A stretch of DNA of 64,000 nt from Streptomyces sp. NBC_00433 (lineage in GTDB: Bacteria; Actinomycetota; Actinomycetes; Streptomycetales; Streptomycetaceae): positions 7,794,001 to 7,858,000 of the forward strand of contig CP107926.1 of assembly GCA_036015235.1 (NCBI GenBank), given 5' to 3'. The notes beneath the pieces were generated by a model. That model saw only the letters and a list, made by a program, of their open reading frames with translations. It was not told the DNA's origin and did not search any database. The position numbers and the translations under genes are program-made. Below are positions 4,400 through 60,767 of the stretch, in pieces (position 1 is the stretch's first letter; each line of letters begins with the position of its first letter).

Positions 4400-4475
4400 G
4401 GCTGGCCTCTGCGGTGGAGGGCACCCCCCTGGGGGCGCGGGGAACGGCGCGCTCAGCCCATCACCGGCCGGTGGT
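4400..4475. repeat. Degenerate copy of the dispersed intergenic repeat
   Basis: The stretch contains GGGGGCGCGGGGAACGGCGC followed by CATCACCGGCCGGTGG. It resembles the GGGGCGCGGGGAACTGCGCG / CCACCACCGGGCCGCAGG segment of the large repeats at 40.2, 48.0 and 56.1 kb. It sits between the divergent GH74 and GH10-like genes. Confidence 0.45.
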
Positions 4476-19280: not shown

Positions 19281-21599
<2,319 letters not shown>

Positions 21600-36781: not shown

Positions 36782-36802
36782 ATGGGCGAGGGGCACGCAT
36801 GA
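36782..36802 (+). CDS. Six-codon upstream ORF coupled to bluB-cobT
   Basis: MGEGHA, starting at an ATG five bases after the strong GGAAGGAG ribosome site and ending in a TGA that overlaps the ATG of the next gene (ATGA at 36799-36802). The downstream gene itself has only GAGGGG. Initiation at the large gene may depend on this mini-ORF. Confidence 0.4.
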   Translation: MGEGHA

Positions 36803-39800
36803 CGGACACCGGTCAGATCCCCGGCGAGGGGCTGCCGGAGAACGCGCTCGGTGACGCGGCTCCGCAGCCGCACACCGACGCACTCGGCGCACCGCAGGCC
36901 GCCGCCCCCGGCTGGGGCGCGGAGCCGCCCGCCGAGCACGGCGCTCCCGCCTACAGCTACCTCGACCAGCCCGCCGCCCCCGGCGCCGGGCTCGACGACG
37001 ACGACGACGTCCTGCTCATGCCGGGCCCGCAGGGCACCTGGAGCGACCCGCAGCCGGTGCCGCCGCAGCCGCTCCCCGTGGCGGACTACGGCACCCCGCA
37101 GGGAGTTGACACACCGTCACCCGCTCCCGCGGCCCCCGCCGCCCCGCGCCGCCCGCTGCACCTGGGCCCGCCGGTCCACGACACCCCCAGCGGCGGCGTC
37201 TCCGTACGCTCCCTCGCCGACCGCGGCCCCGCCCAGGGCGGCGCCCCCGTCCCGCCCCCGCTCCGGCTCCAGGGCGGCCCGCCGACCTCGGGCCCCGAAT
37301 ACCTCGACATCGCGCAGGACGACGCCCACGGCATCCCGGCGCAGCAGTCCGGCGACCCCGCCGACCCGTCGACCCCGGCCGCGGGCACCGCCTGGCCCGC
37401 CGCCCGGACCCCGTCCCAGCAGTCCCTGATCCCGCACGCCGACAGCGTGATCCCGTCCCAGCAGGCGCCCGAGCCGATCCTGGCCTTCCCCCCGGCGGAG
37501 GTCGCGGCTCCGGCGGCGGCCGCTCCGGTCGAGGCCGAGCCGGTCGCCGAGCCGTCTGTCGAGCCGGCGCCTGCGGCCGGCGGTGCGCCGACCGAGGGCG
37601 CTCCGGTGGCCGGCGGTGCGCCGGGTGAGGGTGTTTCCGCGGTCGGCGGTGCGCCGGCTCCCGCTGCGGCCGAGCCTGTGGCCGCCGGTGCGCGGGACGC
37701 GTCGGCGGCTGCTTCTACGGATGCGGCTCCGGCCTTCGGCGCCGGGGTGCCGTCGGCCGCCGGTGAGCAGCCGGTCGGGCCGGTGGCCGTACCGGCGACG
37801 CCGAGCGCGGACGAACCGGTCGCGCCCCAGCCCGCGCCGGTTGCCTATGTGGCCGAGCCCGCTGTCGCGCCCGTTACCGTCGCGCCCGCTCCCGTCGCGC
37901 CCGTCCCCGCGGCGGACGCGGGGGAGCCCGACCAGGCGGCCGAGCCCGTGGCGCCGCCGACCGCGGCCGGCCCGGTGCTCTCCGGGCCTGCCGCCGCGCT
38001 GTCCGGCGCCCTCCAGGCGGCCGCCCCGACGCCGCCGATCGGCCTCGACCTGGCCACCCCGCCCTCGGAGCCGGCCTTCGGCGGCCCGCCCGCCACGGGC
38101 GGCGACGCCTTCGTGTCGGCGACCGGCACGGCCGACCTCGCCTCGCTCGTGGCTGCCGCGGGCAACCCCTCCGCCAAGGACGCCGGTTCACCGGCCGCGC
38201 CCGAAGCCCCCGCCCCGGTGGAGGCCCCGGCACAGCCCCAGGCCGACGTACCCGGCCCCCGGCCGGTCGCCGCCGACGAGGACGCCCTCGTCGTACCCAA
38301 GGGCCGTACGGTCAAGCGCGCGCACGCGGCAGCGGCACCGCCGCAGGCCGAGGACGGCGCCGCCCCCGTGTCCGGCGAAGCCCAACCGGCGGCGGCCGCG
38401 GCCGAACCGGACGCCGCCCCGAAGGGACGCAGGGCCGCCCGGCGGGCCGAGGCCAGGGCCGCGGAGGCCGAGGTGTCGGAGCCCGCGGAGGCGTACGAAC
38501 CCGCCGTGCGGGACGCGGTGCACCGGGTCATCCGGGAGCGCCGCGACATCCGCAACGGCTTCCGATCCGACCCGATCCCGCACGACGTGCTGCTGCGCGT
38601 CCTGGAGGCGGCGCACACCGCGCCCAGCGTCGGGCACTCGCAGCCGTGGGACTTCGTCGTCATCCGCTCCGAGAAGACCCGCGAGAAGATGCACGAGCTG
38701 GCCATGGCCCAGCGCGAGGCGTATGCGAAGTCGCTGCCCAAGGGCCGTGCCCGGCAGTTCCGCGAGCTGAAGATCGAGGCGATCCTCGACACCCCCGTGA
38801 ACATCGTGGTGACCGCCGACCCCACCCGCGGCGGCCGGCACACCCTTGGGCGGCACACCCAGCCGCAGATGGCGCCGTATTCGTCGGCGCTGGCCGTGGA
38901 GAACCTGTGGCTCGCCGCCCGCGCGGAAGGACTCGGCGTCGGCTGGGTCAGCTTCTTCGACGAGCGCCAGATGGTCGCGGAGCTGGGCCTGCCCGAGCAC
39001 CTGGAGGTCGTCGCCTACCTGTGCGTCGGGTATGTCGACGAATTCCCCGAGGAACCCGAGCTGATGCAGGCCGGCTGGTCGCAGCGCCGCCCGCTGTCCT
39101 GGGTCGTGCACGACGAGGAGTACGGCAACCGCGCGCTGCCCGGCGAGGAGCCGCACGACCTGCTCGAGGAGACGCTGCGCGGCATCCGCCCGCTGGACGC
39201 CAAGGCGCTCGGCGAGGCGTGGGAGCGGCAGAAGCGGATGACCAAGCCGGCCGGGGCACTGGGCATGCTGGAGATCATCTCCGCACAGCTCAGCGGCCTG
39301 TCCCGGCAGTGCCCGCCGCCCATCCCCGAGCCCGCGGCCGTGGCGATCTTCGCCGGCGACCACGGGGTGCACGCCCAGGGCGTCACCGCGTGGCCGCAGG
39401 AGGTCACCGCGCAGATGGTCGCCAACTTCCTCGGCGGCGGCGCGGTCTGCAACGCCTTCGCCAACCAGGTCGGGGCGGAGGTCTGCGTCATCGACGTCGG
39501 CGTCGCCTCGGAGCTGCCCGGCACACCGGGGCTGCTGCCGCGCAAGGTACGGGCCGGCACCGCGGACTTCACGGTGGGCCCCGCCATGACCCGCGAGGAG
39601 GCGCTGCGCGCCATCGAGGTCGGCATCGAGACCGCCCGCGACCTGGTCGCCGCCGGCAACAAGGCGCTGCTCACCGGTGAGATGGGCATCGCCAACACCA
39701 CGACGTCGGCCGCGCTGATCGCCGTCTACACCGGGGTCGACCCCGCCGAGGTCACCGGCCGCGGCACCGGCATCAACGACGAGATGCACGCGCGCAAGGT

Positions 39801-40212
39801 GGAGGTCGTCCGGCGCGCGCTCGAACTGCACCGGCCCGACCCGGCCGACCCGATCGCGGTCCTCACCGCGATCGGCGGCCTCGAACACGCCGCGATGGTC
39901 GGGCTGCTGCTCGGCGCGGCCGCGCTCCGCACGCCGGTGATCCTCGACGGGGTCAGCGCGGGTGCCGCGGCGCTCGTGGCCCGCGCGATCGCACCGGAGG
40001 TGCTGGCCGCGTGCATCGCCGGGCACCGCAGCGCCGAGCCGGGCCACGTCGCGGCCCTCACCACGCTGGGCCTGCGCCCCCTGGTCGACCTCGACCTCCG
40101 CCTCGGCGAAGGCACGGGGGCGCTCCTTGCCCTTCCCCTGGTCCAGAGTGCCGCCCGCGTCATGCACGAGGTCGCCACGTTCGACGCGGCGGGCGTCACG
40201 GAAAAGTCCTAG
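36799..40212 (+). CDS. cobT: BluB-CobT fusion: DMB synthase plus nicotinate-nucleotide:DMB phosphoribosyltransferase, with long disordered N-terminus
   Basis: A 1137-residue protein. Residues 1 to about 565 are Ala/Pro/Val/Glu-rich low complexity without recognisable domains, probably disordered. Residues about 568-785 form a BluB-type flavin destructase: RVIRERRDIRNGFRSDPIPH, HTAPSVGHSQPWDFVVIRS, RGGRHTLGRHTQPQMAPYSS and GLGVGWVSFFDERQMVAELG. BluB converts FMNH2 to 5,6-dimethylbenzimidazole. Residues about 786-1137 form CobT: KPAGALGMLEIISAQLSGLS, AIFAGDHGVHAQGVTAWPQ, LTGEMGIANTTTSAALIAVY, GRGTGINDEMHARK and LRLGEGTGALLALPL, with the catalytic Glu1104. CobT activates DMB to alpha-ribazole phosphate for the lower ligand of cobalamin. 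The fusion would pass DMB from one site to the other. Confidence 0.93.
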   Translation: MTDTGQIPGEGLPENALGDAAPQPHTDALGAPQAAAPGWGAEPPAEHGAPAYSYLDQPAAPGAGLDDDDDVLLMPGPQGTWSDPQPVPPQPLPVADYGTPQGVDTPSPAPAAPAAPRRPLHLGPPVHDTPSGGVSVRSLADRGPAQGGAPVPPPLRLQGGPPTSGPEYLDIAQDDAHGIPAQQSGDPADPSTPAAGTAWPAARTPSQQSLIPHADSVIPSQQAPEPILAFPPAEVAAPAAAAPVEAEPVAEPSVEPAPAAGGAPTEGAPVAGGAPGEGVSAVGGAPAPAAAEPVAAGARDASAAASTDAAPAFGAGVPSAAGEQPVGPVAVPATPSADEPVAPQPAPVAYVAEPAVAPVTVAPAPVAPVPAADAGEPDQAAEPVAPPTAAGPVLSGPAAALSGALQAAAPTPPIGLDLATPPSEPAFGGPPATGGDAFVSATGTADLASLVAAAGNPSAKDAGSPAAPEAPAPVEAPAQPQADVPGPRPVAADEDALVVPKGRTVKRAHAAAAPPQAEDGAAPVSGEAQPAAAAAEPDAAPKGRRAARRAEARAAEAEVSEPAEAYEPAVRDAVHRVIRERRDIRNGFRSDPIPHDVLLRVLEAAHTAPSVGHSQPWDFVVIRSEKTREKMHELAMAQREAYAKSLPKGRARQFRELKIEAILDTPVNIVVTADPTRGGRHTLGRHTQPQMAPYSSALAVENLWLAARAEGLGVGWVSFFDERQMVAELGLPEHLEVVAYLCVGYVDEFPEEPELMQAGWSQRRPLSWVVHDEEYGNRALPGEEPHDLLEETLRGIRPLDAKALGEAWERQKRMTKPAGALGMLEIISAQLSGLSRQCPPPIPEPAAVAIFAGDHGVHAQGVTAWPQEVTAQMVANFLGGGAVCNAFANQVGAEVCVIDVGVASELPGTPGLLPRKVRAGTADFTVGPAMTREEALRAIEVGIETARDLVAAGNKALLTGEMGIANTTTSAALIAVYTGVDPAEVTGRGTGINDEMHARKVEVVRRALELHRPDPADPIAVLTAIGGLEHAAMVGLLLGAAALRTPVILDGVSAGAAALVARAIAPEVLAACIAGHRSAEPGHVAALTTLGLRPLVDLDLRLGEGTGALLALPLVQSAARVMHEVATFDAAGVTEKS

Positions 40213-40214
40213 CC

Positions 40215-40510
40215 CGGACCCCACAGTTGCGCTGTGTGGGTGGCTTGTCTCGCAGCTCTCCCCCAGAGCTTCGCCTGGGGGTACCCCCACGCGCCCCTGA
40301 AAAACGCTCACCCTCCAGGCGCCAACGGTGGGCGTAGGAGGACGCAGGCCAAAAGGGGCGCGGGGAACTGCGCGCGCAACCCACCACCGGGCCGCAGGCA
40401 AGCAACGCCACCGCAAGTGGCAACCACCTGGGGCGCGTGGGGGTACCCCCACGCGAAGCTCTGGGGGAGAACTGCGAGACCGCCCCCACACAGCGCAACT
40501 GTGGAGTCCG
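40215..40510. repeat. Large intergenic repeat, copy 1, with 80-base inverted arms
   Basis: The left arm 40215-40297 and right arm 40430-40510 are about 90% complementary over some 80 bases, both carrying CCACAGTTGCGCTGTGTGGG and CCCCCAGAGCTTCGC. The centre contains TGAAAAACGCTCACCCTCCA and GGGGCGCGGGGAACTGCGCG. It lies between bluB-cobT and cobA and could fold into a very long hairpin. Confidence 0.85.
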
Positions 40511-40612
40511 TGACAGCACCCCGCAGGGAGCGGCGGGGAACAAGGGGGTGACCCCGGTGGAACGTAAGATCGGGTCGAGGGAATCGTGAACGGCGGAAGG
40601 GAGCCGAGCCGG

Positions 40613-41848
40613 ATGGATCGGATGGACGAGGCCCCGGCGTACCCGGTCGGACTGAGACTGCGCGGCCGCCGCGTCGTGGTGATCGGCGCCGGCCAGGTCG
40701 CCCAGCGCCGCCTCCCCGCCCTGGTCGCAGCCGGCGCGGACATCGTCGTGGTGGCGCCGCAGGCCACCGCGTCGGTCGAGGCGATGGCGGACGCCGGCGA
40801 GCTGCGGTGGGAGCGCCGGGCGTACCGTCCGGGCGACCTGGCCGAGGCCTGGTACGCCCTGGTCGCGTCCACCGACCCGGCCGCGAACACCGCGGCCTCC
40901 GCGGAGGCTGAGGAGCGCCGCGTGTGGTGCGTCCGCAGCGACGACGCCGACGCGGCGACCGCGTGGACGCCGGCCACCGGGCGTACCGAAGGCGTGACCG
41001 TGGCCGTCCTGACCGGGCGCGACCCGCGCCGCTCCGCCGCGGTGCGGGACGCGGTCATCGAGGGGCTGCGGGACGGCAGCCTGGTGGCCCCGCAGCACCG
41101 GGCGCGCACCGCCGGCGTCGCGCTGGTCGGCGGCGGCCCCGGCGACCCGGACCTGATCACGGTGCGCGGGCGCCGCCTGCTGGCCGAGGCGGACGTGGTG
41201 ATCGCCGACCGGCTCGGCCCGCGCGACCTGCTGGGCGAACTCCCGCCGCATGTCGAGGTGATCGACGCGGCGAAGATCCCCTACGGCCGGGCGATGGCCC
41301 AGGAGGCCATCAATGCCGCGCTGATCGAGCACGCCAAGGCGGGCAAGGCCGTCGTGCGGCTCAAGGGCGGCGACCCGTACGTCTTCGGGCGCGGCATGGA
41401 GGAGGCGGAGGCGCTGGCGGCCGCGGGCATCGCGGTGACGGTGGTGCCGGGCATCTCCAGCTCCATCAGCGTGCCGGGCGCGGCCGGCATCCCGGTCACG
41501 CACCGGGGCGTCGCCCATGAGTTCACCGTGGTCAGCGGGCATGTCGCGCCCGACGACGCCCGCTCGCTGGTCGACTGGTCCGCGCTGGCCAGGATGCGCG
41601 GCACCCTCGTGCTGCTGATGGCCGTGGAGCGGATCGGCGCCATCGCGGACACGCTGATCGCGGGCGGGCGCCCGGCCGGGACCCCGGTCGCGGTGGTCCA
41701 GGAGGGCACCATGGCCGCCCAGCGCCGGGTGGACGCCACGCTGGCGTCGGTGGCGCGTACGGTCGCCGAGGAGGGCGTACGCCCGCCGGCCGTCATCGTC
41801 ATCGGCGACGTGGTCACCGTCGGGCGGTCGGGCGCCGGCCGTGGCTGA
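40613..41848 (+). CDS. cobA: Uroporphyrinogen-III C-methyltransferase with N-terminal Met8/CysG-type domain
   Basis: A 411-residue fusion. Residues 1-160 form a precorrin-2 dehydrogenase-like domain: LRLRGRRVVVIGAGQVAQRR (NAD-binding), WCVRSDDADAATAWTPAT and DPRRSAAVRDAVIEGL. Residues 165-411 form the SUMT domain: VALVGGGPGDPDLITVRGRR, VVRLKGGDPYVFGRGMEEAE and VVPGISSSISVPGAAGIPVT. It makes precorrin-2, the branch to siroheme and cobalamin. The chelatase function of the N-terminal part is uncertain. The ATG at 40613 follows GGAAGGGAG; GTG at 40586 is an alternative. It overlaps the next gene by eight bases. Confidence 0.94.
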   Translation: MDRMDEAPAYPVGLRLRGRRVVVIGAGQVAQRRLPALVAAGADIVVVAPQATASVEAMADAGELRWERRAYRPGDLAEAWYALVASTDPAANTAASAEAEERRVWCVRSDDADAATAWTPATGRTEGVTVAVLTGRDPRRSAAVRDAVIEGLRDGSLVAPQHRARTAGVALVGGGPGDPDLITVRGRRLLAEADVVIADRLGPRDLLGELPPHVEVIDAAKIPYGRAMAQEAINAALIEHAKAGKAVVRLKGGDPYVFGRGMEEAEALAAAGIAVTVVPGISSSISVPGAAGIPVTHRGVAHEFTVVSGHVAPDDARSLVDWSALARMRGTLVLLMAVERIGAIADTLIAGGRPAGTPVAVVQEGTMAAQRRVDATLASVARTVAEEGVRPPAVIVIGDVVTVGRSGAGRG

Positions 41849-47951: not shown

Positions 47952-47985
47952 AACTTACCGACCCGAGCCCGGCCCCGCCACTCCC

Positions 47986-48454
47986 TGCGGGGTGCTGTTA
48001 CGGACTCCACGGTGCCGCTGCGTGGGGGGCTGGTCTCGCAGTTCCCCGAGCCCCTGGGGTGCTGCCCCTTGCGGTGGCATTGCTTGCCTGCGGCCGCGTC
48101 GTGGTTGTGCGCGCAGTTCCCCGCGCCCCTGGGCGGGTGCCACTTGCGGTGCGGTGCTTCTGCCGCGCCGTCGTGGCTTGGCGCGCAGTTCCCCGCGCCC
48201 CTTTGGTTCCTGCGTCCTCCTGCGCCCTTCGTTGGCCCCTGCCGGGGCTGGGCTCTGCGCTGGAGGGTGAGCGTTTTTCAGGGGCGCGTGGGGGTAACCC
48301 CGGGCGAAGCTCCGGGGGAGAACGGAGCGCCCCGCCGACGAGGCGGGGAAGAAAGCGACGCCACCGCAAGGGGCAATCACCCAGGGGCTCGGGGAACTGC
48401 GAGACAAGCCACCCACACAGCGCAAGTGTGGAGTCCGTAACAGAGCACCCCGCA
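47986..48454. repeat. Large intergenic repeat, copy 2, with 95-base inverted arms
   Basis: The left arm 47986-48078 (TGCGGGGTGCTGTTACGGAC, later CAGTTCCCCGAGCCCCTGGG) pairs with the right arm 48360-48454. Two further GCGCAGTTCCCCGCGCCCCT units lie inside, plus GCGTTTTTCAGGGGCGCGTG and the AAGCTCCGGGGGAGAAC element. It fills the gap between the acyl-CoA dehydrogenase start and the kinase stop. A third outward arm fragment extends to about 48530. Confidence 0.85.
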
Positions 48455-48537
48455 GGGGGTGGCGGGGAACTGCGCGACAAGCCCCCGCGCAGCGGCACCG
48501 TGGGGTCCATGCAGCGCACCACAAGGGGCAGCGGGGC

Positions 48538-52614: not shown

Positions 52615-52686
52615 TGGACGATACTGGGATTGAACCAGTGACCTCTTCCGTGTCAGGGAAGCGCTCTCCCGCTGAGCTAATCGTCC
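52615..52686 (-). tRNA. tRNA-Val(GAC)
   Basis: A 72-nt cloverleaf on the minus strand. Acceptor GGACGAT/ATCGTCC with A73, anticodon loop CTGACAC giving GAC, and TpsiC arm GGTTCAATCC. It is the last tRNA of the cluster. Confidence 0.95.
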
Positions 52687-52715
52687 TCGGGCGGCGCCGC
52701 GGCGCCGGTGGTGCG

Positions 52716-52787
52716 TGCGCGATACTGGGATTGAACCAGTGACCTCTTCCGTGTCAGGGAAGCGCTCTCCCGCTGAGCTAATCGCGC
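52716..52787 (-). tRNA. tRNA-Val(GAC), variant acceptor stem
   Basis: The body is identical to its neighbours, but the acceptor is GCGCGAT/ATCGCGC. The compensatory changes on both strands of the stem show selection. Anticodon GAC. Confidence 0.95.
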
Positions 52788-52825
52788 GGGATGTCCTGCT
52801 GGGGACCGGATCCGGTGGGATCCCG

Positions 52826-52897
52826 TGGACGATACTGGGATTGAACCAGTGACCTCTTCCGTGTCAGGGAAGCGCTCTCCCGCTGAGCTAATCGTCC
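52826..52897 (-). tRNA. tRNA-Val(GAC)
   Basis: Same 72-nt sequence as the copy at 52615-52686; acceptor GGACGAT/ATCGTCC, anticodon GAC. Confidence 0.95.
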
Positions 52898-52901
52898 TTG
52901 G

Positions 52902-52972
52902 AGGTGGAGACGGGATTTGAACCCGTGTAGACGGCTTTGCAGGCCGTTGCCTCGCCTCTCGGCCACTCCACC
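52902..52972 (-). tRNA. tRNA-Cys(GCA)
   Basis: 71 nt; acceptor GGTGGAG/CTCCACC with U73 as expected for Cys, and anticodon loop CTGCAAA giving GCA. It follows tRNA-Gly in the minus-strand cluster. Confidence 0.95.
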
Positions 52973-53008
52973 AACACAGCAGGGGTCCCGGGAGGATCCC
53001 CCACGTCG

Positions 53009-53081
53009 AGCGGACGACGAGATTCGAACTCGCGACCCTCACCTTGGCAAGGTGATGCTCTACCAACTGAGCCACGTCCGC
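53009..53081 (-). tRNA. tRNA-Gly(GCC)
   Basis: 73 nt; acceptor GCGGACG/CGTCCGC with U73, and anticodon loop TTGCCAA giving GCC. It is first in the transcribed order Gly-Cys-Val-Val-Val. Confidence 0.95.
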
Positions 53082-56127: not shown

Positions 56128-56480
56128 GCCCCCACGCGCCTCTTCCAGGCCGGCTTCCTCCGCCGCCCAGGGCGCTGCCCCTTGCGGTGGTCTGTCGCCT
56201 TCTCGCCGTCCTGGTTGCGCGCGCAGTTCCCCGCGCCCCTTTTGGCCTGCGTCCTCCTGCGCCCAGGCGTTCGCCCCTGCCAGGGGCAGGGCTCTGCGCA
56301 GAGGGCACGCGTTTTTCAGGGGCGCGTGGGGGTACCCCCACGCGAAGCTCTGGGGGAGAACGGAGCGACAAGCCACGACGCACGCGCAGCCAGGCAACGC
56401 CACCGCAAGGGGCAATCACCCAGGGGCTCGGGGAACTGCGAGACAGGCCCCCACCGGGCCGCGGGAAGGCAACGCAGCGC
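56128..56480. repeat. Large intergenic repeat, copy 3
   Basis: It carries GCTGCCCCTTGCGGTGG, GCGCAGTTCCCCGCGCCCCT, the GCGTTTTTCAGGGGCGCGTG core followed by TACCCCCACGCGAAGCTCTG, and GCCACCGCAAGGGGCAATCA with CGGGGAACTGCGAGACA. Same orientation as copy 2, opposite to the core of copy 1. It lacks the outer left arm. It lies between convergent GNAT and DsbA-like genes. Confidence 0.85.
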
Positions 56481-60026: not shown

Positions 60027-60098
60027 GGGCGATTAGCTCAGCGGGAGAGCACTTCGTTCACACCGAAGGGGTCACTGGTTCGATCCCAGTATCGCCCA
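60027..60098 (+). tRNA. tRNA-Val(CAC)
   Basis: A 72-nt cloverleaf; acceptor GGGCGAT/ATCGCCC with A73, anticodon loop TTCACAC giving CAC. TAAAGT at 60008-60013 may be its -10. A strong hairpin follows. Confidence 0.95.
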
Positions 60099-60105
60099 CC
60101 CGGAT

Positions 60106-60148
60106 CGAGGGGCCCGGAAACCGTTCCACACGGTTTCCGGGCCCCTCG
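60106..60148. terminator. Strong hairpin after tRNA-Val
   Basis: A perfect 18-bp stem CGAGGGGCCCGGAAACCG (60106-60123) with its complement at 60131-60148 and a seven-base loop, eight bases after the tRNA. Confidence 0.85.
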
Positions 60149-60192
60149 GCATTTCCCCGCCGCCCGCCGGACGTCTCGCGCACACTGGGCGC

Positions 60193-60657
60193 ATGGACTG
60201 GAGCCACTACCGCTTCCGCAGCACCTGGCTGCTGGACGCGGCGCCGGACGCGGTCTACCAGGTGCTGGAGCGCCCCGACTTCTACCCGCGGTGGTGGCCG
60301 CAGATCCGCGAGGTCCGGCAGACCGGCGACACCACGGGAGTGCTCCGCTTCCGCTCGCTCCTGCCCTACGACCTGGTGGTCACCGCCCGCTCCACCCGCC
60401 AGGACCCCGAGCGCCGGTTACTCGAAGTCGCCATGACCGGCGACCTGGAGGGCTGGGTCCGCTGGACGGCCACCTCCAACGGCCCCGGCACCCGGCTGCT
60501 GTTCGAGCAGGACGTCATCGTCCGCAAACCCCTGATGCGCCTGCTGGCCGTCCCGGGCCGCCCCTTCTTCGTCGCCAACCACGCCCTGATGATGCGCAGC
60601 GGCCGCACCGGCCTGCTCGCCCGCCTCGCGGCCGCGGACCCCGGCGATGTCGTTTGA
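60193..60657 (+). CDS. SRPBCC domain protein with a TTA codon
   Basis: A 154-residue polyketide-cyclase/dehydrase-type protein: YRFRSTWLLDAAPDAVYQVL, RPDFYPRWWPQIREVRQ and LRFRSLLPYDLVVTARSTRQ. The ligand is unknown. Codon 76 is TTA (60418-60420), the rare Leu codon read only by the bldA tRNA, which suggests expression late in development. It sits between two identical tRNA-Val(CAC) genes. The ATG at 60193 lacks a strong ribosome site. Confidence 0.85.
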   Translation: MDWSHYRFRSTWLLDAAPDAVYQVLERPDFYPRWWPQIREVRQTGDTTGVLRFRSLLPYDLVVTARSTRQDPERRLLEVAMTGDLEGWVRWTATSNGPGTRLLFEQDVIVRKPLMRLLAVPGRPFFVANHALMMRSGRTGLLARLAAADPGDVV

Positions 60658-60695
60658 ACGCCGAGTGCCATCGCCTGTAGGCTTCTCTCCATCCC

Positions 60696-60767
60696 GGGCG
60701 ATTAGCTCAGCGGGAGAGCACTTCGTTCACACCGAAGGGGTCACTGGTTCGATCCCAGTATCGCCCA
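60696..60767 (+). tRNA. tRNA-Val(CAC), second copy
   Basis: Identical over 72 nt to the copy at 60027-60098. Anticodon CAC. Confidence 0.95.

What the first reader, a model, noticed from the sequence alone, without database searches (positions are those of the whole stretch)
40215..40510. Large intergenic repeat copy 1 with long inverted arms
The two outer arms of about 80 bases are roughly 90% complementary and enclose a core shared in opposite orientation with copies 2 and 3. A transcript would form an exceptionally long hairpin between bluB-cobT and cobA, which are on the same strand, so it could attenuate or insulate cobA expression. I recall that GGGGCGCGGGGAACTGCGCG-type sequences are common between Streptomyces genes, but their role is not settled.
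Basis: partly seen in the sequence, partly recalled or inferred. Interest (0 to 1): 0.6.

Follow-up and report, generated by a model that had tools for sequence, protein, structure and literature searches.

The report
Mirrored hairpin repeats at gene ends
This is one copy of a very common non-coding hairpin repeat that sits just after genes in Streptomyces-type bacteria; it tends to keep its place between species while its internal pieces are reshuffled, and the enzyme that spreads similar repeats elsewhere is missing from nearly all copy-rich genomes checked.

Summary
Window 40215-40510 (better 40215-40538) holds outer arms of about 82 nt, 93% complementary, around a core shared with copies 2 and 3. 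It belongs to a large family: a 20-nt core (GGGGCGCGGGGAACTGCGCG, up to 2 mismatches) occurs 501 times in this genome against 1 for the reversed control. Units of about 74 nt (core plus variable linker) form mirrored arms around an asymmetric centre in 27 of 55 sampled sites. In a 2.0-Mb sample 0 of 115 cores are coding; 51 of 55 occupied gaps hold a gene 3' end (background 877 of 1137), and in co-directional gaps the repeat lies nearer the upstream stop in 28 of 32. Two species with genes 95% identical share 7 of 12 occupied sites but not the content: at four of the seven the orthologous copy ranks only 15th to 42nd among copies. Y1 (RAYT-type) transposases are absent from 25 of 26 copy-rich genomes. 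Best reading: a RAYT-less, REP/BIME-like mosaic at gene 3' ends, reshuffled in place by recombination at the core and tolerated or used as a two-sided transcript-end structure. cobA attenuation is not supported: a promoter-like motif lies between repeat and cobA.

The parts
40215..40538 (.). whole mosaic element (copy 1), starting 3 nt after the cobT stop codon
   Evidence: right edge from inverted pair I13 with copy 2
40215..40250 (-). outer left linker; could form a small local hairpin (CCCACAG/CTGTGTGGG, by eye), though the predicted fold pairs it with the right arm
40251..40297 (-). left core, type B (core interrupted by a ~31-nt nested palindrome around GGGGGTACCCCC)
40298..40354 (+). asymmetric central module (GAAAAACGC...GCGTAGGAGGACGCAGGCCAAAA); opposite orientation in copies 2 and 3
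40355..40374 (+). right core, type A, exact GGGGCGCGGGGAACTGCGCG
40375..40429 (+). linker with GCCAC-CGCAA-GTGGC mini-hairpin (present in the predicted fold)
40430..40476 (+). second right core, type B
40477..40538 (+). outer right linker (CACACAGCGCAACTGTGGAGTCCG...CCCCGCAGGGAGCGGCGGGG)
40565..40570 (+). TAAGAT, -10-like motif upstream of cobA, outside the repeat
   Evidence: promoter role inferred
47973..48497 (.). copy 2 (3 left and 3 right units), between the 3' end of a kinase gene and the 5' end of an acyl-CoA dehydrogenase gene, both on the minus strand; edges approximate
56155..56452 (.). copy 3, between convergent acetyltransferase and DsbA-like genes; edges approximate
4420..4467 (+). 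single diverged core (GGGGCGCGGGGAACGGCGCG) in a divergent gene pair

Best explanation
The feature is one copy of a REP/BIME-like mosaic repeat of Streptomycetaceae. Its building block is a 20-nt imperfect palindrome (the core) plus a linker of about 54 nt that itself holds small hairpins; in the commonest layout one to three blocks on each side face outward from an asymmetric central module. Copies lie almost only behind stop codons. SHOWN: anatomy, abundance, absence from coding sequence in the sample, 3'-end placement, stable sites with unstable content between two species, absence of Y1 transposases from 25 of 26 copy-rich genomes. INFERRED: (a) sites are kept by descent while content is exchanged by recombination or gene conversion at the shared core, perhaps started by breaks at the palindrome; unequal exchange between tandem cores adds or removes 74-nt units and exchange between inverted cores flips the centre; (b) in transcripts from either side the chain of GC-rich hairpins forms a transcript-end structure (termination without a U-tract and/or a block to 3' exonucleases), so between cobT and cobA it acts as a passive insulator, with cobA served by its own promoter.
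For: Core 501 against control 1. In 2,004,000 sampled bases (83% coding by my gene finder): 0 of 115 cores coding, 2 at sample edges, 113 in 55 gaps: convergent 19 of 196, co-directional 32 of 681, divergent 4 of 260, i.e. 4.8% and 4.7% per available 3' end (convergent against divergent P=1e-4). Length-matched gaps of 300-600 nt agree: 10 of 33, 17 of 104, 2 of 63. 28 of 32 co-directional copies are nearer the upstream stop (P=2e-5); median stop-to-repeat 22.5 nt against repeat-to-start 103.5 nt (depth 4; 18.5-32 and 101-121 at the other depths). Independent annotation on Streptomyces plasmids: of 5 records looked at (of 28 Streptomyces records matched), 4 have annotated neighbours, 2 convergent and 2 nearer the upstream stop. 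G000 against G009: 121 orthologous gaps, 7 occupied in both, 4 and 1 private, 109 in neither, odds ratio 191, P=4e-8; unit counts differ at 5 of 7 shared sites and length by up to 240 nt, against a median of 2 nt in repeat-free gaps. The orthologous copy ranks 2, 42, 15, 25, 4, 1, 18 among 54 other same-genome copies. cobT-cobA site: core at up to 4 mismatches in 11 of 19 copy-rich genomes (own included; 9 at up to 2 mismatches), in different layouts, and in 0 of 8 copy-poor ones. Centre orientation about 50:50. Literature: GC-rich palindromes without poly-U upstream of mapped transcript ends in S. avermitilis (PMC8780764, passage) and a highly structured U-poor class in S. clavuligerus (PMC8269248, passages).
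Against: No expression data; the transcript-end role is untested. Exact core absent in 63 of 150 family genomes, so it is dispensable, unless diverged there. In 22 of 31 gene ends with 25 nt or more between stop and repeat, that stretch already folds to -12 kcal/mol or better, so the repeat is often not the first hairpin. First-60-nt stability at repeat-bearing ends is only marginally above repeat-free ends (median -27.2 against -25.0, P=0.053). No pair with both sides changed in 27 units; the free-stem scan found compensatory variants, but 6 of 8 are one type, possibly one event. Two of the seven shared-site copies are close to their orthologue (ranks 1 and 2). Recombination events were not observed; nested insertion could also give mirrored arms. 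Selection against insertions in promoters and genes alone could give the 3' bias.
Confidence: 0.5

Rival explanations
1. Selfish non-autonomous element moved by an unidentified transposase. The 3' bias is only what survives selection, and mirrored arms arise by new palindromes inserting into the loops of old ones.
For: A second form with near-perfect ~30-nt terminal inverted repeats (by eye) made of the same core looks like a discrete unit of about 125 nt (11 pairs; +/- pairs 106-109 nt apart listed in G023, G026, G027 and G012). Type B cores carry a palindrome in the core loop. Copy number is very patchy, 0 to 679 among 34 other same-genus genomes. Left and right unit numbers correlate (Spearman 0.52, permutation P=0.04, 27 elements). 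Own genome holds 8 IS110 matches and 1 reverse transcriptase match.
Against: Y1_Tnp absent in 25 of 26 copy-rich genomes; IS110 absent in copy-rich G009, G014 and G019; reverse transcriptase absent in copy-rich G006, G009, G012, G014 and others. I saw no target duplication by eye. 0 of 55 occupied gaps lie in the 320 kb sampled from the left 1.8 Mb and 0 in the last 80 kb sampled, where mobile elements are usually dense (recalled). Sites are shared between species.
Confidence: 0.3
2. Attenuator specific to cobA, as first proposed: cobT transcripts read into cobA are stopped or processed at the hairpin.
For: Same-strand genes and a very stable hairpin directly after cobT.
Against: Promoter-like motif between repeat and cobA, also in 8 of 26 parsed orthologues; the family sits behind unrelated genes and in convergent gaps; central U-run strand not oriented with genes.
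Confidence: 0.05
3. Protein-binding array (nucleoid protein, gyrase or similar, as recalled for E. coli BIMEs), with 74-nt (7-turn) phasing of cores.
For: Near-invariant core; unit length mostly 71-77 nt with variable linkers.
Against: Constant length may be simple descent; no binding data; several sites have a single core.
Confidence: 0.1

Closest known systems
REP / BIME (enterobacterial palindromic units and mosaics)
   Same: Short imperfect palindrome, alternating orientations, linkers, extragenic, hairpins in 3' regions
   Different: Core sequence not that of REPs (recalled, not aligned here); mirrored outward-facing arms around a central module; core at chance level outside the family in the genomes searched; no link to a RAYT. 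BIME details recalled; REP/3' UTR passage seen in PMC4681348
REPIN with RAYT (Pseudomonas)
   Same: The second form (two inverted cores ~105 nt apart) has REPIN layout; tandem clusters also occur in REPINs (PMC3116915 passages)
   Different: No Y1 transposase in 25 of 26 copy-rich genomes; cores of the finding's form face outward; sites conserved between two species
MITE
   Same: Short, non-coding, inverted termini in the second form
   Different: No partner transposase or target duplication identified; content replaced in place
ERIC / NEMIS / Ype / Efa intergenic hairpin repeats
   Same: Intergenic, co-transcribable, long RNA hairpin
   Different: Modular 74-nt units; RNase processing untested here (comparison from PMC1590033 passages)
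Clustered-hairpin intrinsic terminators
   Same: Several GC-rich hairpins behind the stop codon, no U-tract needed (PMC8355165 passages)
   Different: A dispersed repeat family, often behind a native hairpin

Membership tests
REPIN/RAYT | RAYT (searched as Y1_Tnp, PF01797) in genomes that carry the repeat | tested here: not met
   absent in 25 of 26 copy-rich genomes incl. own, present in copy-rich G139; present in copy-poor G001, G004, G010
REPIN/RAYT | two inverted palindromes with spacer as the replicative unit | tested here: inconclusive
   second form fits; the finding itself has outward-facing multi-unit arms
REP/BIME-like mosaic (by analogy) | imperfect palindrome, many copies, extragenic | tested here: met
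REP/BIME-like mosaic (by analogy) | combinations of palindromes and linkers in alternating orientation | tested here: met
REP/BIME proper | homologous core sequence of enterobacterial REPs | not tested
   no alignment to enterobacterial REPs was run; core hits outside the family were at most 3 per genome
MITE | terminal inverted repeats | tested here: met
   second form only, by eye
MITE | target site duplication and empty sites | tested here: inconclusive
   none evident by eye; orthologous gaps mostly replaced rather than cleanly empty
MITE | autonomous partner transposase | tested here: inconclusive
   only Y1, IS110 and RT families were searched
Intrinsic terminator (canonical) | hairpin followed by U-tract on the transcript strand | tested here: not met
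   central-module U-run strand unbiased, 9 against 6 of 15 co-directional sites
RNase III-processed hairpin repeat (ERIC/NEMIS type) | co-transcription and cleavage | not testable with these tools
   no RNA data
Rfam RNA families | match to a covariance model | tested here: not met
   0 matches at E<=1 in 40150-40620; only tRNAs in the window at gathering scores

The most novel reading that the evidence does not exclude
A RAYT-independent repeat system in which palindromic gene-end cassettes break and are rebuilt from other copies through an invariant 20-nt recombination or recognition core, so that very many gene ends across a bacterial family share a continually rewritten, two-sided transcript-end module kept by an unknown dedicated factor.
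Probability: 0.25. Interest if true: 0.75.

Novelty: new variant of a known kind. Interest (0 to 1): 0.45.

Why it matters
An exact 20-mer occurs in 87 of 150 sampled genomes of one family, up to 471 times in one genome; in the own-genome sample it is never coding and mostly at gene 3' ends, and the Y1 transposase that goes with REP sequences elsewhere is missing from 25 of 26 copy-rich genomes. If it ends or protects transcripts, it shapes expression units in antibiotic producers and gives ready-made insulators; if it is maintained by recombination in place, it is a natural assay for concerted evolution in bacteria. I found no description of this repeat in the listings and passages seen from ten literature searches (one search covered 13-14-nt fragments of the core and found 0 papers). 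The library holds open-licence PMC papers only, so it may be described elsewhere.

Tried and rejected
Mirrored-arm covariation as evidence for a maintained long hairpin: none (36 same-rank pairs within elements, mean identity 0.666, against 860 between elements, 0.676). Directional terminator by the U-run: no orientation bias. Covariation in the unit alignment: none with both sides changed. Covariation in the nested palindrome loop: 4 against a shuffled mean of 2.7, null. Centre-out ageing of units: right rank 1 and rank 2 linkers about equally alike (0.692 and 0.681; left arms too few to judge). RAYT, IS110 and reverse transcriptase as a required mover: each is missing from copy-rich genomes, though the own genome does hold IS110 and one reverse transcriptase. 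Plasmid or phage origin: the long copy finds 1 of 72,556 plasmid records (19% of the query) and 0 of 50,697 phage records; a 36-nt unit query at E<=10 gives 90 plasmid records, 28 of them Streptomyces, 10 covering 80% of the query, and 21 phage records, none covering 80%. Rfam gave nothing for the repeat. A lenient self-comparison put the repeat edge within a few nt of most stops; I judged it over-extended and used the strict one. In some searches relaxed patterns were used; one search's loose module pattern matched 2444 coding or edge places, and only the 27 intergenic hits with the A-run were used (15 of them co-directional). Presence means a core at up to 4 mismatches or the nested palindrome; one search counts cores only, so G009 counts as empty there though it carries the nested palindrome at that site. 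One plasmid locus (L178) had no annotated genes and was dropped. Pieces L175-L177, chosen off the grid, were left out of the distribution statistics (one of them, L176, gave one of the 11 pairs, and L177 one of the 27 units).

Full report
WHAT IS THERE. The window is bases 7,794,001-7,858,000 of an unnamed 8.99-Mb single-contig genome, by its relatives and plasmid matches of the Streptomyces kind (the name is inferred). The repeat starts 3 nt after the stop of a bluB-cobT fusion gene (stop at 40210-40212) and ends near 40538, about 75 nt before the likely cobA start near 40613 (my gene finder says 40622). Its arms pair at 93% over about 82 nt and fold into one hairpin on either strand, -227.5 and -244.2 kcal/mol, z about -16. 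The finding is confirmed, with a later right edge.

ANATOMY OF THE FAMILY. The core GGGGCGCGGGGAACTGCGCG at up to 2 mismatches occurs 268 + 233 times in the genome; the same pattern read backwards occurs once. In sampled sequence, successive plain cores of one orientation mostly start 71-77 nt apart, about 100-106 nt when the first is of type B. Of 55 occupied gaps, 27 have the layout 'left-facing cores, centre, right-facing cores' with one to three units a side; left and right numbers are correlated (Spearman 0.52, P=0.005; permutation on the summed difference P=0.04). The centre is an asymmetric module, 22 copies of which were compared by eye; it has a CCTCC(TGCGC)...(GCGCA)GGAGG stem in many copies and an A-run/U-run on one side. 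Type B cores carry a palindrome of about 31 nt (around GGGGGTACCCCC) where the plain core has its loop; the finding has this in both outer cores. A second form has two inward-facing cores 100-106 nt apart (11 pairs in the sequence scanned), with near-perfect terminal inverted repeats by eye.

WHERE IT LIES. I sampled 2,004,000 bases (a 464-kb block plus 77 stretches of 20 kb, all but one on an even grid) and called genes with a simple codon-usage finder written here (1702 genes, 83.3% coding). Start positions are approximate, and the calls were not checked against an annotation. None of 115 cores was coding; 2 were at sample edges. The 113 others fall in 55 gaps: convergent 19 of 196, co-directional 32 of 681, divergent 4 of 260. 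Per available 3' end this is 4.8% and 4.7%. Occupied gaps are longer than others; within 300-600 nt the order stays (10 of 33, 17 of 104, 2 of 63), above 600 nt it is 0 of 12, 11 of 46, 2 of 41. In co-directional gaps 28 of 32 lie nearer the upstream stop (P=2e-5). In a strict self-comparison the repeat begins a median 22.5 nt after the stop and ends a median 103.5 nt before the next start. Of five Streptomyces plasmid records looked at, the four with annotated neighbours agree: two convergent, two co-directional and nearer the upstream stop. No occupied gap was found in the 320 kb sampled from the left 1.8 Mb or the last 80 kb sampled, although one search lists a few cores near 0.61-0.65 Mb and a match at 8.72 Mb, so the arms are depleted, not empty.

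HOW IT EVOLVES. The exact core is found in 87 of 150 family genomes and 9 of 17 genera, 0 to 471 times; at 2 mismatches 0 to 679 times in the 34 other same-genus genomes searched and at most 3 times per genome outside the family. Between the own genome and G009 (187 reciprocal-best genes, mean identity 95%) there are 121 comparable gaps: 7 occupied in both, 4 only here, 1 only there, 109 in neither (odds ratio 191, P=4e-8). At the shared sites unit counts differ in 5 of 7 and length by up to 240 nt, while repeat-free gaps differ by a median of 2 nt. The orthologous copy is usually not the closest: it ranks 2, 42, 15, 25, 4, 1 and 18 among 54 other copies of the same genome, although the gaps compared include unique flanks that should favour the orthologue. 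At the cobT-cobA site 27 of 30 fetched loci could be parsed; a core at up to 4 mismatches is present in 11 of 19 copy-rich genomes (own included; 9 at up to 2 mismatches) in layouts such as >>>>, >>>>>>, <<, <>, <>>, and in 0 of 8 copy-poor genomes. The place is stable and the content is not. Within one element, left and right arms are no more alike than arms of different elements (0.666 against 0.676), and flanks of the second form occur in mixed combinations (by eye). Shuffling at the shared core explains these together; this is inference.

WHAT MOVES OR KEEPS IT. REP sequences elsewhere go with RAYT transposases (PMC3116915, passages seen). Y1_Tnp is absent from the own genome and from 25 of 26 copy-rich genomes (the exception is G139), and present in three copy-poor same-genus genomes. 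IS110 transposases are absent from copy-rich G009, G014 and G019 but present in the own genome (8 matches). Reverse transcriptases are absent from G006, G009, G012, G014 and others, with one in the own genome. Other transposase families were not searched, so an unknown mover remains possible.

WHAT IT DOES. If transcribed, each copy gives a chain of GC-rich hairpins, and the mirrored build would make it work from both sides; that is the basis for a transcript-end or insulator role. Published maps report GC-rich palindromes without poly-U at transcript ends in S. avermitilis (PMC8780764, passage) and a highly structured, U-poor class in S. clavuligerus (PMC8269248, passages); a study of S. coelicolor and E. 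coli saw abundant short transcripts at palindromes, many in 3' UTRs, and took them as probable decay intermediates (PMC4681348, passage). Against a dedicated role: the core is absent from many genomes; the U-run is not oriented with genes (9 against 6); of 70 repeat-bearing gene ends, 30 leave under 20 nt before the repeat, but 31 leave 25 nt or more and 22 of these already fold to -12 kcal/mol or better on their own; stability just after the stop is only marginally higher than at repeat-free ends (P=0.053). Core covariation is weak: 108 anchored cores outside genes, 16 off-consensus, 8 of these fully paired (6 of one type), paired cells 420 against a shuffled mean of 405.5, maximum 414; the 27-unit alignment shows no pair with both sides changed.

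FOR COBA. A TAAGAT motif lies between repeat and cobA here (40565-40570), and TA(A/G)GAT at a similar distance in 8 of 26 parsed orthologues, the other 18 lacking it (two have TAAAGT). I therefore read the element as lying between cobT's end and cobA's own promoter, an insulator at most, not an attenuator. This is inference from sequence.

VERDICT. A real, abundant, structured repeat; a RAYT-less REP/BIME-like family with in-place turnover at gene 3' ends. The observation and the recalled abundance are right, the cobA attenuation is not supported, and function still needs RNA data.

Noticed in passing
window 36799-40212: The bluB-cobT fusion carries about 570 N-terminal residues, rich in Pro and Ala, without any Pfam match before the nitroreductase domain.
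   Followed up: no
G000:C1:5497741-5498412: Five exact cores spaced exactly 163 nt apart, all on one strand: a tandem array of a longer unit.
   Followed up: no
G009 contig C57 near 200248-200531 (orthologue of copy 3's gap): The gap holds a different inverted repeat of about 190 nt (GGGCCTGTCCGGCGGATC...GATCCGCCGGACAGGCCC, by eye), MITE-like, in place of this family.
   Followed up: no
window 20824-20930: Three copies of a 30-nt tandem repeat (GCCGGCGGCTCTGGTGGGGGCACCTCCCAT).
   Followed up: no
window 52615-53081 and 60027-60767: Five tRNA genes on the minus strand, three of them near-identical, and two near-identical tRNA genes on the plus strand.
   Followed up: no
NZ_CP108841.1 (S. chartreusis 1.16-Mb linear plasmid): Five places match the 36-nt unit query, so the family also occurs on large linear plasmids; the record has almost no gene table.
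   Followed up: partly
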